Origin: Actinomycetota bacterium
Lineage (GTDB): Bacteria; Actinomycetota; Thermoleophilia; Solirubrobacterales; Solirubrobacteraceae
Assembly (NCBI GenBank): GCA_009699865.1
Contig: WLNJ01000006.1
Location: 1 to 64,000 of the forward strand
Length of the DNA stretch: 64,000 nt
Direction of reading: 5' to 3'
In this document: piece after piece, positions 4,617-55,807 of the stretch
Layout: each line of letters starts with the position of its first letter
How positions within the stretch are numbered: the first letter of the stretch is position 1
Notes under the pieces: generated by a model
The model's database searches: none
Told to the model about the DNA's origin: nothing
Seen by the model: the letters and a program-made list of their open reading frames with translations, nothing else
Position numbers and translations under genes: made by a program

Positions 4617-5162
4617 TCAGGTGGCTTTCGGCTCGAGTGCCGCGACATAGGGCAGATTGCGGTGGCGTTCCTGATGGTCTAGGCCGAAACCAATAACAAA
4701 CCGGTCGGGAATCTCAAAGCCCACATACTTAACATCCGCCGCCTCAGGCCTGCGGATCGGCTTGGAGAGCAAGGTGCAGACCTCAAGGCTCTTTGGACTC
4801 CGGGCCCGCAGGTTCCGGATCAGATACTGGAGTGTCAAGCCCGAGTCGACGATGTCTTCGATGATCAAGACGTCGCGCCCTTCAAGCGGAGCGTCAAGGT
4901 CCTTGATGATCCTGACAACGCCAGAGGACTGCGTTGCCGACCCATATGAGGAGACGGCCATGAAGTCAACCTCACAAGGAACCTCAATTGCGCGCATCAA
5001 GTCAGCGATGAAGAAGAGGGCGCCCTTGAGGACCCCGATCAACAGCAGACCCTGATCTAGGTCGGCGTAGTCGCGGCTGATCTCAGCCGCCAGCTCCTTG
5101 ACACGATTATTGAGTTCGTCCGGTTGGACGAGGATCTCGCCGATCTGCTCTGGGTTGGACAT
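4617..5162 (-). CDS. hpt: Hypoxanthine phosphoribosyltransferase
   Basis: Purine salvage enzyme that makes IMP (and usually GMP) from hypoxanthine or guanine and PRPP. The PRPP-binding loop is VLIIEDIVDSGLTLQYL (13-residue type I PRTase motif), preceded by the LLIGVLKGALFF segment that holds the family's cis peptide, and followed by KYVGFEIPDRFVIGFGLD. The start is the Met at 5162 (MSNPEQIGEIL, 181 aa), 10 nt after the tilS stop; the open frame continues 37 codons further but would overlap tilS. The tilS-hpt-ftsH order is a well-known bacterial arrangement and supports all three calls. Confidence 0.95.
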   Translation of the reverse strand: MSNPEQIGEILVQPDELNNRVKELAAEISRDYADLDQGLLLIGVLKGALFFIADLMRAIEVPCEVDFMAVSSYGSATQSSGVVRIIKDLDAPLEGRDVLIIEDIVDSGLTLQYLIRNLRARSPKSLEVCTLLSKPIRRPEAADVKYVGFEIPDRFVIGFGLDHQERHRNLPYVAALEPKAT

Positions 5163-5172
5163 GGGCGGCAGC

Positions 5173-6138
5173 CTAACTGCCAAGGGGGGCGCGAGGGATG
5201 AACCGGAGGACTCCGCGCTCAACGACTGCCCTAACGCCACCTGGAACATCAAGCATTGCGACTCCCTGATCACTCAACTTGGCAATGTCATCTGCCCTGC
5301 GGGCCACGCCCGGGGCAAGCCGGCCGGCAGCTTCGTCAGCTAGGCGCTGGACTGTCAGCCGCCGGAGCGCTGGTGGCTGCTCGCGCAGCCTTGCCAGTGG
5401 AATTGATCTGTTGGGCGCGGTTCCATCGATGAGACCGTCTACTAGCTCATCAAGGACAGCCGCTTCGTCTCTAAGGATCTCGGCGGTTGCGACAACGTTG
5501 GCCTCGGCGGCCGGGTGAATCTCCTTGAGCGCCCCGACCAGTCCCGCTCGGACTCGGTTGCGCGCAAACGCGGGACTTGAGTTAGATGGGTCGTCAGCGG
5601 TGATGAACCCGCGCGAAAGGCAGTACTCGACCGTCGACGCGCGTTCCACCCCGAGCAAGGGCCTAACCAGTTTGCCTGAGCGTGGCGTCATTCCCAGTAG
5701 TGCTCGGCGACCAGGAGCGGCAGCCAGGCGGTAGAGCACCGTCTCAGCCTGGTCACTGGCTGTATGCCCTGCGGCAATGGTCGCCCCGAGCTCAGTTGCC
5801 ATCTCAGCGGCAATCGCATATCTGTTCTCGCGGGCCCAACCTTGAATGTTGCCCCGCGCCGAGTTGGCGTCCAGAGTCCGAACCTCAAGCTCAACTCCAA
5901 TCACTGCACAGACTTCCACGCAGATCGCAGTGTCAGCTTCCCCGGGCCGAAGACCATGGTCGATGTGAAGTGCCGTCACCGACCTGGCCCCCGCCAACCG
6001 TGCGGCTACATCCGTTAGGCAAACCGAGTCAGGTCCACCGGACAGGAGCACGACAACTGGGCCACCCGGGGGGAGTAGACCGCTACCCCTGGCCGCCTCA
6101 ACAACTCCGTGGCCACCTTCAGCCACGGCTGACCTCAC
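5173..6138 (-). CDS. tilS: tRNA(Ile)-lysidine synthase
   Basis: TilS modifies C34 of the AUA-reading tRNA-Ile to lysidine, which changes both its decoding and its charging identity. The PP-loop ATP pyrophosphatase motif LLSGGPDSVCL lies at residues 32-42, followed by HIDHGLR and, later, AAGHTASDQAETVLYRL, all diagnostic of TilS. With 321 aa it is of the shorter, actinobacterial type with a reduced C-terminal region. It starts with GTG at 6138, overlapping the stop of the preceding coiled-coil gene as GTGA. Its neighbours hpt and ftsH are the usual companions of tilS. Confidence 0.95.
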   Translation of the reverse strand: MRSAVAEGGHGVVEAARGSGLLPPGGPVVVLLSGGPDSVCLTDVAARLAGARSVTALHIDHGLRPGEADTAICVEVCAVIGVELEVRTLDANSARGNIQGWARENRYAIAAEMATELGATIAAGHTASDQAETVLYRLAAAPGRRALLGMTPRSGKLVRPLLGVERASTVEYCLSRGFITADDPSNSSPAFARNRVRAGLVGALKEIHPAAEANVVATAEILRDEAAVLDELVDGLIDGTAPNRSIPLARLREQPPALRRLTVQRLADEAAGRLAPGVARRADDIAKLSDQGVAMLDVPGGVRAVVERGVLRFIPRAPLGS

Positions 6139-6458
6139 TTCCCGCTCTTGCGGGGGGCGGCCTTTGACTTCTTGACGGCAGGCTTGGAAGCGGCCTTGGT
6201 GGCCGGCTTCTCCAAGGCAGTTAGCCGCTTCTCAATGTCGGAGAGACGTTCTTCAACTTCACGCACATCCTCCCGGGAGGCAACGCGGAGGTCATCAAGT
6301 GTGTCCCTCAGCTTGCCGGCTACTTGCGAGACCTCTTCTACAAGGTCCTGCGCGCGTTCGCGGGAGGCGCTCGCCTGACCAACAGTCGCTTGGACTGTTC
6401 GGTCAACTGCGGTGCGCAATGCATCTGCTGCTTCACGTGAGTTTTGTGGTCGTGCCAT
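6135..6458 (-). CDS. Small coiled-coil protein with Lys/Ala/Pro-rich tail
   Basis: I do not recognise a named family with certainty. From the Met at 6458 (MARPQNS) the product has 107 aa: a helical region of heptad character (about residues 8-80, with LVEEVSQVAGKL and VREVEERLSDIEKRLTALE) and a basic low-complexity tail (KAASKPAVKKSKAAPRKSGK). Coiled coils with such histone-H1-like tails occur in phasin-like granule proteins and in nucleoid-associated proteins; neither role can be assigned here. It is coupled to tilS by GTGA and has a similar gene at 7188-7628, on the other side of the phosphorylase-like gene. Confidence 0.6.
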   Translation of the reverse strand: MARPQNSREAADALRTAVDRTVQATVGQASASRERAQDLVEEVSQVAGKLRDTLDDLRVASREDVREVEERLSDIEKRLTALEKPATKAASKPAVKKSKAAPRKSGK

Positions 6459-6488
6459 AGGCGACAAGCGTACCCCTATCCTCGCCGT

Positions 6489-7178
6489 GTGGCCATTTTG
6501 CCTAGAATTCTCCGTCCGACCGCTCCGCCTTGCGAGCAGGCCATCCTCGTCGGCGATCCCGGAAGGGCCCTTCTCCTAGCCCAACAGCTACTTGTGGCGC
6601 CCGCCCCAATGTTCAACCACCACAGGGGCCTTTGGGGCTACAGCGGGCCCACGGCGTCAGGGAACGGAGATCTACTGATCCAGGGCACCGGGATGGGCGG
6701 TCCGAGCTTGGCCGCGGTCGTAACAGACCTGATCGAACTCGGCGTCAAATCATTCGTCCGGGTTGGCACGGCTGCTGCCGCGACCTCGTCCTGCCCCGCT
6801 CCAGGCGGAATCTTGATTGCCCGCGATGCTGTCGCTTCAGATGGCACCAGCAGATCCCTCACTGCTGGGGTACACGTCGTGGCTGCTGATCCGGGCCTTG
6901 TGGCGAGCGCCGTGGCTGACCTCAGCGACAGCGCGGCATTGGGGCGCGTCCTCTCATGCGACTTGCCGCAAACACCCCCAAGTTGGGCTGACGAACACGC
7001 CAGTGACGCGATCGACATGTCCACAGCCGCTCTCTACGCGCTCTGCGAGAGCGAGGGCATCCCCGCAGTCTCACTGCTGGTAATCACCGGCGGCGAGACG
7101 AACCCTCTGGCCGAGAATGACCTCAACGAGGCGGTCTGTGTCGCGGGGAGCACCGCGACACGCCTCCTCCAACCCTGA
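6489..7178 (+). CDS. Nucleoside phosphorylase family protein (uridine/purine type)
   Basis: Members of the PNP/UDP phosphorylase family split nucleosides with phosphate; some relatives are hydrolases. The N-terminal AILVGDPGRALLLAQQLL matches the phosphate-binding GDPxR opening of uridine phosphorylase-like proteins, followed by the central LLIQGTGMGGPSLAAVVTDLIELGVKSFVRVGTAAA block, and DAIDMSTAALYALCESEGIP corresponds to the region where the family has its ribose-binding Met-Glu. Here that position reads DMSTAAL rather than EMEAAAL, so catalysis or specificity may differ. The start is taken at GTG 6489 (229 aa); starts further upstream would overlap the divergent gene ending its 5' side at 6458. 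Confidence 0.75.
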   Translation: MAILPRILRPTAPPCEQAILVGDPGRALLLAQQLLVAPAPMFNHHRGLWGYSGPTASGNGDLLIQGTGMGGPSLAAVVTDLIELGVKSFVRVGTAAAATSSCPAPGGILIARDAVASDGTSRSLTAGVHVVAADPGLVASAVADLSDSAALGRVLSCDLPQTPPSWADEHASDAIDMSTAALYALCESEGIPAVSLLVITGGETNPLAENDLNEAVCVAGSTATRLLQP

Positions 7179-53494: not shown

Positions 53495-55807
53495 TTAGGG
53501 CAGTTCAGGCTCGGCCGCTTGGTGATCGCGAACAGGCAGCTCAACTGGGCGGCTATGCATGGCCCGGAGGCGCACCTCACGCCAAGTGATGCCCTCTCCA
53601 ACGAGTGCGGGCATTCCCATCAGGAACGCGGTTGCCAGCTCAACCACTTGAAGGACGATGCCGTAGCCAAGCGCGTCCGCTGACGAGACTCCGTAGCCAC
53701 CAGCCAGCACTGCGACGCAGGCCGCTTGGAACACACCGAGGTTGGCCGGGGTCGCTGGGATCGCAGCGGTCACATTGACTGCGAAGAGGACGGCAGCTGC
53801 CGCACCCGGCCCAGCATCCCCCAAGCCCATTGCCTCAAGCAGAACCCAGCAGGAAAGCCACTGCAAGACCCACGCAGAGAACTGCATGGTCGCGGCAATA
53901 AAGGCTGGCTTGGGTTTCCGGAACACAGTCAGGCCCCGCCTGATGTCCACGAGCAAGGTGCGGGCTTTGATCGAAAGATCAGAGATGCGCTCAGACCTTG
54001 CGTTGTGGCCGCGCGCCAGCACGATCGGCGCGAGCAGCACGCAGAGGGCGATGATCATCGGAGCGATAGAGATCGCCACAAGCGCATCCGCGTGACCGTG
54101 GAAGAGGGGAACAGACCTGAACATCACAACGCCCAACACGGCAAGTGCCATCAGGTTCAGGAGTGTCTGGGAAACGATGGTTCCCAGCACGGCCGGGAAG
54201 GTCACCCTTGGATCGCCTGCTCGGCGGGCGACGATCACTGCTCGGGCTGGCTCACCGAGGCGGGCTGGCAGGGTCGCTGACATCAACACGCCAATGAATG
54301 TTCCCCTCATCGCATCCATCAACTTCAGGCCAGCGTCTGGAAGGGCGGCCTTCAGCGTGGCATCCCAGGCCACCGCCCTGAAGACCATTGAGGAACACAT
54401 CACCCCCAATCCAGCTAGGACAAGGGAGGGCTTCGAGTGGATCAGGGCTGACACGATGCTGTCCAGTCCGATGCGGCTGAGGGCAAACAGTGAGGCGGCA
54501 ACGGCCGTGCCTGACGCGACTGCGATTACGCCCCTGCGGACTCTTGCTCGGATACGCGCACGGCGCCGCTCTGGCGTGTCGTCCGGCGGCGGAGTCCGGC
54601 GCGGGGACACAACGGGGCCAAGGTCTGATGGCAGTGAGCCGATCGCGACACCCACACGCTCACGCAGGGTTACAGGCTCAGGGTGCTGCAGAGCAGTCGC
54701 ATAGACATCTGTGACTTGGCTGGCGACACGGTCCCATGAGAACCGCTGTGCGCTTTGCCATGCGGACTCACTCAGCCGGGCAATCTGTTCGGCGTCATCG
54801 CCAAGGTCCCTGAGCGCAAGTGCCAGCGCAACTGGGTCTCCTGGTGGGACAAGAATCGAGTCAACCCCGTCAGTCGCCACATCCCGGTAGCCAGCAATGT
54901 CGGAGGCAACCACTGGCGTTCCGGCTGCAAATGCCTCTGTCAGCACCATGCCAAAGCTCTCCCCTCCCAAGGATGGTGCGCAGAGTAGATCTGCTCTTGC
55001 CAGCTCGCTCAGCTTCCGCTCGTCGTCCACCTTGCCAAGCGCCCTGATCCCAGCATGGTTGTGGAGCAGCGGCTCGAGCTGTTCCCGCGTCACGCCGACA
55101 AGCGTCAGCTCCACATCCGAATGTCCTCTCAGTGCCTCGAAGGCCCGGAGCAGAACAGAAAGTCCTTTCCGCTCGACTGCCTGACCAATGAAGAGGACTT
55201 TCAGCGGTCCCTGCCGGTTGGTGACTGCCGGCGCTGTGTTCCCCACGAGCGTCCCGTTAGGAATGATCGTGTAACGACCACCATAGAAACGCTTTGCGGT
55301 CCATTCTGCGGCGTGAGACACCGCAATACGCGCATGTAGGTGGTTTAGGCGCGCCTTGCCGCCCAGAGCCACCGCAACGCCGTTAGAGAGGGAGTTCTCC
55401 GCATACGCGTGGAAGGTGCCGACCCGAGCGCCAGCAGGTGCGGTGCATGAGTCCCAGCCAACAACTGGGGCTATTGGCTCATGAATGTGGATTACGTCGA
55501 ACTTGCCCGCCTTGAGCTCCCTCCGCAGGACAACTAGCCCAGTTGGGTTGATCATCAGATTCGAGACGGCACCGTTGGCGGGCACCCCAGCTGTCCCTCC
55601 GACTGGAACAAGCCAGTCCGGAACATCACGAACTTGTGGCTCGGCTCCACGGTGGAAGAACTTCGACTTCCGCGTTGGAGGATCAAGTGGCGCAAATACC
55701 CTCACGTCATTCCCAGCTTGAGCAAGGGCACCAGCGAGGCCCTCGACATGGCTCATGACTCCCCCCGGATAGGTCCAGGAGTAGGGGGAAACGACTGCGA
55801 TCCGCAC
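53495..55807 (-). CDS. Fusion: GT4 glycosyltransferase (PimA-like) and LPG-synthase-type membrane domain
   Basis: A 770-aa two-part protein. Residues 1-385 are a GT-B glycosyltransferase of family 4: MRIAVVSPYSWTYPGGVMSH at the start (UDP/GDP-sugar site), VIHIHEPIAPVVGWDSC, then IGQAVERKGLSVLLRAFEAL, and the EX7E region in LGGESFGMVLTEAFAAGTPV, as in phosphatidylinositol mannosyltransferases. After a linker of charged residues (about 400-430) come about seven to eight TM helices of the lysylphosphatidylglycerol synthase TM (UPF0104) family: RLGEPARAVIVARRAGDPRV and AIPATPANLGVFQAACVAVL are its two signatures. The fusion suggests a lipid-linked sugar is made and then handled or flipped by the same protein. 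Convergent with metH, 9 bp apart. Confidence 0.85.
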   Translation of the reverse strand: MRIAVVSPYSWTYPGGVMSHVEGLAGALAQAGNDVRVFAPLDPPTRKSKFFHRGAEPQVRDVPDWLVPVGGTAGVPANGAVSNLMINPTGLVVLRRELKAGKFDVIHIHEPIAPVVGWDSCTAPAGARVGTFHAYAENSLSNGVAVALGGKARLNHLHARIAVSHAAEWTAKRFYGGRYTIIPNGTLVGNTAPAVTNRQGPLKVLFIGQAVERKGLSVLLRAFEALRGHSDVELTLVGVTREQLEPLLHNHAGIRALGKVDDERKLSELARADLLCAPSLGGESFGMVLTEAFAAGTPVVASDIAGYRDVATDGVDSILVPPGDPVALALALRDLGDDAEQIARLSESAWQSAQRFSWDRVASQVTDVYATALQHPEPVTLRERVGVAIGSLPSDLGPVVSPRRTPPPDDTPERRRARIRARVRRGVIAVASGTAVAASLFALSRIGLDSIVSALIHSKPSLVLAGLGVMCSSMVFRAVAWDATLKAALPDAGLKLMDAMRGTFIGVLMSATLPARLGEPARAVIVARRAGDPRVTFPAVLGTIVSQTLLNLMALAVLGVVMFRSVPLFHGHADALVAISIAPMIIALCVLLAPIVLARGHNARSERISDLSIKARTLLVDIRRGLTVFRKPKPAFIAATMQFSAWVLQWLSCWVLLEAMGLGDAGPGAAAAVLFAVNVTAAIPATPANLGVFQAACVAVLAGGYGVSSADALGYGIVLQVVELATAFLMGMPALVGEGITWREVRLRAMHSRPVELPVRDHQAAEPELP

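What the first reader, a model, noticed from the sequence alone, without database searches (positions are those of the whole stretch)
53495..55807. Glycosyltransferase fused to an LPG-synthase-type membrane protein
Seen: residues 1-385 are a GT4 enzyme with PimA-like motifs, and residues about 430-770 a polytopic UPF0104/LPG_synthase_TM unit, in one continuous frame with no internal start that looks used. Known: such membrane proteins are often partners of glycolipid pathways, sometimes as flippase or lipid-modifying components. Inference: the fusion may couple sugar transfer to movement of the glycolipid across the membrane.
Basis: partly seen in the sequence, partly recalled or inferred. Interest (0 to 1): 0.5.

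Follow-up and report, generated by a model that had tools for sequence, protein, structure and literature searches.

The report
Mannosyltransferase fused to lipid translocase
One bacterial protein appears to join an enzyme that adds a sugar to a membrane lipid with a membrane module of the kind that moves lipids across the membrane, and it may point to the unknown transporter of a glycolipid class important in tuberculosis bacteria.

Summary
Window 53495-55807 (-) is one 770-residue gene: a GT4 half whose best solved relative is PimA (phosphatidylinositol mannosyltransferase, E 1.5e-53) and a UPF0104/LPG_synthase_TM half whose predicted fold matches the MprF flippase domain (Z 19.4). It is not a frameshift or two genes: the linker shows 15 synonymous and 0 amino-acid changes against its nearest relative, and 74 of 101 genomes searched, own included, carry the fusion. 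In other orders of the class the halves are separate genes: GT directly followed by UPF0104 in 9 of 20 loci I chose, UPF0104 nearby on the same strand in 14 of 20. Elsewhere in Actinomycetota the GT relatives lie near the phosphatidylinositol-phosphate synthase gene (15 of 20 chosen loci). Best reading: a one-chain synthase-translocase that glycosylates phosphatidylinositol on the inner leaflet and passes the product to an MprF-type lipid translocase. Substrate and flipping are untested. Fusions of glycosyltransferases with this membrane domain are already known as a kind (archaeal AglD), so this is a new variant. It matters because the flippase of phosphatidylinositol mannosides is unknown.

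The parts
53495..55807 (-). Whole fused gene, 770 aa, GTG start
54683..55807 (-). GT4 (GT-B fold) half, residues 1-375, PimA type
54935..54961 (-). E-x7-E motif, residues 283-291 (PimA E274 and E282); H133 (PimA H118) and K214 (PimA K202) also kept; residue 209 is Q where PimA has R196
   Evidence: the roles of these residues are recalled
54533..54682 (-). Translated, conserved linker, residues 376-425, with a basic stretch before the first membrane helix
53615..54517 (-). UPF0104 / LPG_synthase_TM (PF03706) membrane half, residues 431-731, MprF flippase-domain fold

Best explanation
The gene makes a single-chain glycolipid synthase-translocase. The cytosolic PimA-type GT4 half transfers a hexose, most likely mannose from GDP-mannose, to phosphatidylinositol in the inner leaflet (inferred from homology, neighbours and pathway genes). 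The C-terminal MprF-type membrane half then moves the product to the outer leaflet, probably as a passive scramblase that gains preference for the product by being attached to the enzyme that makes it (inferred). Shown here: one continuous translated protein, PimA kinship, MprF flippase fold, one clade of fused rows for each half, and separate neighbouring genes in other orders of the class. Not shown: donor, acceptor, product, any lipid movement.
For: GT half: PimA best PDB sequence match and best fold match; PimA H118, K202, E274, E282 equivalents in 24 of 24 fused proteins aligned; in a tree rooted on 5 PimB' rows the fused GTs (13 of the 24 rows given) are one clade inside the PimA-type group. 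Pathway: PimA-type GTs lie in the same 12-16 kb stretch as a PI-phosphate synthase gene in 15 of 20 chosen actinobacterial loci outside the class, 3 of 3 Streptomyces loci, and as ino1-GT-PIPS in 3 of 3 Chloroflexota loci. Own genome: inositol-phosphate synthase and a PI-phosphate synthase relative close together on contig 3, and a nucleotidyltransferase whose best NCBIfam match is mannose-1-phosphate guanylyltransferase, 288 bits, below the 440 cut-off. Lipids: the results text of PMC10722151 lists PI and PI mannosides by TLC for Solirubrobacter deserti CPCC 204708 (passage; but see against). Membrane half: Pfam 103 bits; VIA-align Z 19.4, rmsd 4.7, 291 residues to MprF 6lvf 29-410, next unrelated fold Z 6.0; pN/pS 0.04. 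Topology: K+R in successive loops of the hydropathy map 12, 2, 8, 1, 10, 0, 5, which puts the GT half on the cytosolic side. Partnership: GT directly followed by UPF0104 in 9 of 20 chosen sister-order loci, UPF0104 on the same strand nearby in 14 of 20, and a PimA-like GT4 followed by UPF0104 in one Bacteriovoracaceae and one Deltaproteobacteria MAG.
Against: No direct evidence of transport or of the product. PimA R196, which binds the donor phosphate (recalled), is Q in 15 of 24 fused rows, the window among them, and R in 9, so the donor is uncertain. PI-synthesis genes are not beside the fused gene: 0 of 33 loci scanned, and 0 of 20 sister-order loci; the GT rows nearest the fused clade are those sister rows and the five actinobacterial rows without PIPS nearby. 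No PimB' relative at E 1e-20 in the own genome and in 47 of 48 high-quality relatives, no PatA-family acyltransferase in the own genome, so this would not be the full mycobacterial pathway. The species description of S. deserti in PMC10722151 omits PI and PIM, against its own results text. 16 of 101 genomes lack a close match; some are incomplete drafts. UPF0104 is near the GT gene in 0 of 20 actinobacterial loci outside the class (also 0 of 3 more). C. difficile cells that overproduced HexSD without HexF, its UPF0104 protein, made the glycolipid (PMC10128005, passages).
Confidence: 0.57

Rival explanations
1. Same two-step machine, different chemistry: the GT half uses another sugar nucleotide or another lipid acceptor (for example PG or diacylglycerol), and the membrane half moves that glycolipid.
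For: R196 to Q change in 15 of 24 fused rows; PI-synthesis genes beside the fused gene in 0 of 33 loci scanned; a GT4 acting on PG with a UPF0104 partner is known, GpgSDF (PMC12713373, passages).
Against: PimA-type relatives are tied to PI-synthesis genes in other lineages; PI-synthesis genes are present in the own genome; PimA is the best match by sequence and fold.
Confidence: 0.27
2. The membrane half is only an anchor or regulator that holds the GT at the membrane; it moves no lipid.
For: PimA is a peripheral membrane enzyme (PMC12041525, passage), so a fixed anchor could help; HexF was not needed for the product when HexSD was overproduced (PMC10128005, passages); the net charge of the PimA membrane-binding helix is lower in the fused rows (1.50 against 2.45 and 2.39).
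Against: The membrane half keeps the MprF flippase-domain fold and varies less than the enzyme half; the number of basic residues at the four PimA helix positions is like that of unfused relatives (2.25 of 4 against 2.40 and 2.48).
Confidence: 0.13
3. Two separate proteins, through an internal start at the linker or a sequencing frameshift.
For: One relative, G040, has its two halves in different frames, in a 72%-complete MAG.
Against: 15 synonymous and 0 nonsynonymous changes in the linker, no SD-like stretch at the two possible starts, conserved linker residues in orthologues, one frame in 74 of 101 genomes, one of them with an in-frame TGA.
Confidence: 0.02

Closest known systems
PimA (phosphatidylinositol mannosyltransferase, mycobacteria)
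   Same: GT half: 36-37% identity in the best Foldseek alignments, E-x7-E, H118 and K202 equivalents.
   Different: PimA is a peripheral protein (PMC12041525, passage) without this membrane domain; R196 is Q in the window protein.
AglD of Haloferax volcanii (N-terminal glycosyltransferase plus C-terminal UPF0104)
   Same: Same order of parts: cytosolic GT then UPF0104; flippase role of the C-terminal domain predicted (PMC5898192, passages).
   Different: AglD acts in N-glycosylation; its GT belongs to another family (GT2, recalled); here the GT is GT4 of PimA type.
MprF (lysyl/alanyl-PG synthase and translocase)
   Same: Membrane half shares the flippase-domain fold; lipid-modifying enzyme and translocase in one chain.
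   Different: MprF has the membrane domain first and an aminoacyl transferase; here a glycosyltransferase comes first.
GpgSDF of Pseudomonas aeruginosa and HexSDF of C. difficile
   Same: Glycolipid-making GT with a UPF0104 partner in one operon; GpgS is GT4 acting on a phospholipid (PMC12713373 and PMC10128005, passages).
   Different: Separate genes, a deacetylase as third gene, PG or diradylglycerol glycolipids.
PplT-domain proteins (Hauser et al. preprint 2022, not read)
   Same: PMC11980842 cites it for this membrane domain being often fused to glycosyltransferases (discussion passage).
   Different: Whether a PimA-type fusion is among those listed could not be checked.

Membership tests
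PimA-type GT4 | Full-length homology to PimA above other GT4 enzymes | tested here: met
   PimA E 1.5e-53 against next molecule E 6.8e-17; tree (quick method, 13 of 24 fused rows); fold
PimA-type GT4 | Catalytic and donor-binding residues H118, R196, K202, E274 (roles recalled) | tested here: inconclusive
   H118, K202, E274 in 24 of 24 fused; R196 is Q in 15, R in 9; the window has Q
PimA-type GT4 | Linked to PI-phosphate synthesis genes | tested here: inconclusive
   Relatives: 15 of 20 actinobacterial loci, 3 of 3 Streptomyces, 3 of 3 Chloroflexota, 0 of 20 sister-order loci. The fused gene itself: 0 of 33 loci, though the genes are elsewhere in the genome
PimA-type GT4 | Transfers mannose from GDP-mannose to phosphatidylinositol | not testable with these tools
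   needs an enzyme assay
UPF0104 / LPG_synthase_TM (PF03706) | Pfam score over the curated cut-off along the domain | tested here: met
   103.2 bits against 33.4, profile 4-302 of 302
UPF0104 / LPG_synthase_TM (PF03706) | MprF flippase-domain fold | tested here: met
   Z 19.4, 291 residues, 6lvf 29-410; next unrelated Z 6.0; model pLDDT 72.7 from 6 sequences. Foldseek alone gave MprF only weak E (best 0.039, rank 2)
UPF0104 / LPG_synthase_TM (PF03706) | Lipid translocation | not testable with these tools
   needs a liposome assay
MprF | C-terminal aminoacyl-PG synthase domain | tested here: not met
   No such domain in the Pfam scan; so not an MprF, though it may work like one
AglD | GT of the AglD family (GT2, recalled) before UPF0104 | tested here: not met
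   The six Pfam matches are GT4-type models and LPG_synthase_TM

The most novel reading that the evidence does not exclude
UPF0104/PplT proteins are the missing flippase (scramblase) of phosphatidylinositol mannosides in Actinomycetota: separate neighbours of pimA in some orders of this class, fused to PimA in one order, and unlinked elsewhere. The fused protein would be a one-chain PI-mannoside synthase and scramblase that makes and exports the first PIM without PimB'.
Probability: 0.33. Interest if true: 0.75.

Novelty: new variant of a known kind. Interest (0 to 1): 0.5.

Why it matters
In mycobacteria the step that moves phosphatidylinositol mannosides to the outer leaflet is put down to an unknown flippase (PMC12041525, passages). 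A bacterial order in which PimA is widely joined to an MprF-fold lipid translocase, with the same two parts as neighbouring genes in other orders of the class, names a concrete protein family to test for that step. It would also give a single protein on which synthesis and translocation can be measured together.

Tried and rejected
Frameshift or internal start: rejected. Apparent splits in relatives: 11 of the 101 genomes have only pieces. In G008 and G021 the pieces break at contig ends (with contig lengths). In G052, G097, G100, G026, G086, G012 and G002 at least one piece lies within 100 bases of position 1 of its contig, but I did not read these; G094 was not looked into; G040 is a frame change in one MAG. 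I saw no intact two-gene form inside the order.

Fusion outside the order: not seen among the listed rows (249 genomes drawn from the class; 396 drawn from the phylum). Both lists are cut, best rows first, so a very divergent fusion could be missed. The three rows whose match ran furthest past the GT half through stops (G310, G326, G478) were read: no UPF0104 gene beside the GT; PIPS nearby in two of the three. Two rows read with them gave one adjacent UPF0104 gene (G123) and none (G118).

Loss of the membrane-binding basic helix after fusion: the count of basic residues does not differ (2.25, 2.40, 2.48 of 4); the net charge of the helix is lower in the fused rows, 1.50 against 2.45 and 2.39. 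Solved structure of the membrane half by sequence profile: no hit up to E 10; Foldseek gave MprF at E 0.039 and weaker, under an unrelated row; the VIA-align second look decided it. The full-length model has pLDDT 71.1, the other four models 48.7-54.3. Upstream partner (cluster 7): 1 of 5 proteins gave a weak Pfam match (E 0.02, below cut-off) and another two chance-level ones; no useful PDB match.

The tree that should show the fused membrane half descending from the sister-order neighbour gene is not decisive: the fused clade is supported (96/94, 24 of 24 rows), its join to the sister clade is weak, and its nearest rows are standalone UPF0104 genes of the same order (mean identity to the window 41% against 25%). 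Left out of that tree: the UPF0104 part of L112, and own paralogue L003, which the home-made profile did not pick up. In the GT tree 11 of 24 fused rows were left out to save time, and the program warned that long branches meet at the outgroup.

Full report
Identity of the genome. The window's nearest named record is a Solirubrobacterales MAG (L005, 95% identical over the whole protein). The window lies in a 1.7-Mb draft genome. Order and class below are the kinship labels of the genome search; that they equal Solirubrobacterales and Thermoleophilia is inferred from the named records and from recall.

Observation. The ORF is open and has two parts by Pfam: GT4 models within residues 14-349 and LPG_synthase_TM over 431-731, each above its cut-off. 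Between the window and L005 the GT half has pN/pS 0.08, the linker 376-430 has 15 synonymous and 0 nonsynonymous changes, and the membrane half has pN/pS 0.04. The linker keeps recognisable residues across relatives of about 55% identity. So it is one translated protein, and the membrane half is more constrained than the GT half.

Distribution. In the 101 genomes (own included), by my count of the rows, 74 have the fusion in one frame (G043 counted through; G096 with an in-frame TGA), 11 have only pieces, and 16 have no close match. Outside the order the listed rows match only the GT half (lists cut). The fused membrane halves form one clade of 24 rows with 96/94 support in a tree of 51, and the fused GT halves one clade of the 13 rows given (quick method): one origin is the simplest reading.

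What the GT half is. PimA is the best PDB match by sequence and by fold. In a tree rooted on PimB' the fused rows lie inside the PimA-type group; their nearest rows are the 20 sister-order GTs and five actinobacterial rows (L166, L167, L168, L172, L173), while M. smegmatis PimA lies in another subgroup with Streptomyces. A PI-phosphate synthase gene lies in the same 12-16 kb stretch as the GT in 15 of 20 chosen actinobacterial loci outside the class (the five without are those same five rows), 3 of 3 Streptomyces loci, and as ino1-GT-PIPS in 3 of 3 Chloroflexota loci; in none of the 20 sister-order loci and in none of 33 loci around the fused gene. So the PI link holds for the wider group and is carried over to the fused protein by descent. 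The own genome has an inositol-phosphate synthase (TIGR03450, 548 bits, below its 638 cut-off), a PI-phosphate or archaetidylinositol-phosphate synthase relative (125 and 132 bits, below cut-offs; PDB matches to PI-phosphate synthases at E about 1e-19) and a PAP2-type protein in one cluster. Ino1 is found in 94 of 101 genomes. At E 1e-20 a PimB' relative is found in 4 of 61 genomes, 1 of 48 of high quality, not in the own genome; PatA's family is absent from the own genome. PMC10722151 lists PI and PI mannosides (TLC) for Solirubrobacter deserti CPCC 204708 in its results, but its species description of the same species names neither (passages), so the lipid evidence is weak.

What the membrane half is. 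A model of residues 415-770 (pLDDT 72.7, six sequences) aligns with the flippase domain of MprF at Z 19.4, with six MprF entries at Z 16.7 or more and the next fold at 6.0. The basic residues of successive loops (12, 2, 8, 1, 10, 0, 5) put the linker and GT half in the cytosol. MprF of P. aeruginosa was shown to move many lipids without an energy source (PMC11980842, abstract and passages). That paper proposes that the fused enzyme gives preference by local concentration; the present protein would be an instance.

Gene pairs. In 9 of 20 chosen sister-order loci the GT gene is directly followed by a separate UPF0104 gene, in the order of the fused domains, the ORFs abutting or overlapping (L113, L115, L122, L124-L129). 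In L120 the two are adjacent in the other order. L112, L116, L119 and L123 have PimB' - UPF0104 - PlsY-like acyltransferase - GT; L110 and L111 have PimB' - PlsY-like - GT. So UPF0104 lies on the same strand near the GT in 14 of 20. One Bacteriovoracaceae and one Deltaproteobacteria MAG have a PimA-like GT4 with UPF0104 next to it, gaps of -4 and +28 bases. Three genomes of one genus in the own family have another GT4 next to a standalone UPF0104 gene (L136-L138). Such repeated pairing argues for joint work of the two parts.

Against. Nothing here shows transport, donor or product. Q stands at the place of PimA R196 in 15 of 24 fused rows and R in 9. In C. difficile HexSD without HexF still gave the glycolipid; a P. 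aeruginosa gpgF mutant had GlcN-PG, at a level that seemed several-fold lower (PMC10128005, PMC12713373, passages): as expected of a translocase, but also of a bystander. In actinobacterial loci outside the class UPF0104 is not near the GT gene (0 of 20; 0 of 3 more).

Known or new. GT-UPF0104 fusions are known: AglD (PMC5898192, passages) and the general statement in the discussion of PMC11980842 (passage), which rests on a preprint I could not read. My ten paper searches (open-licence PMC only) listed no paper that, from title and start of abstract, is about a PimA-type fusion. I therefore file it as a new variant of a known kind. Its value is the link to the unassigned PIM flippase (PMC12041525, passages).

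Change on checking: confidence went from 0.60 to 0.57, and the novel case from 0.35 to 0.33, because the lipid report proved to contradict itself and because no PI-synthesis gene lies near the fused gene.

Noticed in passing
L099:4882-6990, L077:9496-11592, L007:1883-3835 and others; not found in four genomes of the window's genus: A 640-710 aa membrane protein without a Pfam family over cut-off (signal segment, about 270 aa that look by eye like a degenerate alkaline-phosphatase-type domain, then about ten membrane helices) lies directly upstream of the fusion, same strand, in 19 of 61 genomes; 31 of 61 have it at E 1e-10 (against the places; my count). Family f4 genomes lack the fusion but keep this gene beside the hemQ-like gene (name recalled) that flanks the fusion in the window; two loci of another family (L173, L206) have a distant relative convergent to standalone pimA.
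   Followed up: partly
window residue 209 (55181-55183, -): PimA R196 equivalent is Q in 15 of 24 fused proteins and R in 9; by genome labels the Q rows are of the own family and the R rows of the two other families of the order: a lineage-level change at a donor-binding position (role recalled).
   Followed up: partly
L116:3772-8063, L119:4304-8375, L123:7587-11700: Apparent operon PimB' - UPF0104 - PlsY-like acyltransferase - PimA in other orders of the class; a PlsY-type enzyme may take the place of PatA in acylating PI mannosides.
   Followed up: partly
L144:4838-10998 (G000 contig 3): Own-genome cluster: PI-phosphate synthase relative, PAP2-type protein, inositol-phosphate synthase, a GT4-PHP fusion protein and a polytopic protein without Pfam match; the PAP2 protein is a candidate for the PI-phosphate phosphatase.
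   Followed up: partly
L136:4749-7102, L137:6784-9146, L138:6006-8473: A second GT4 next to a standalone UPF0104 gene in one genus of the same family.
   Followed up: no
L088:1297-3423 and 4740-7103: Genome G095 seems to have two tandem copies of the fusion start on one short contig; the first reads into unknown bases (X) and its membrane half was not found there.
   Followed up: no
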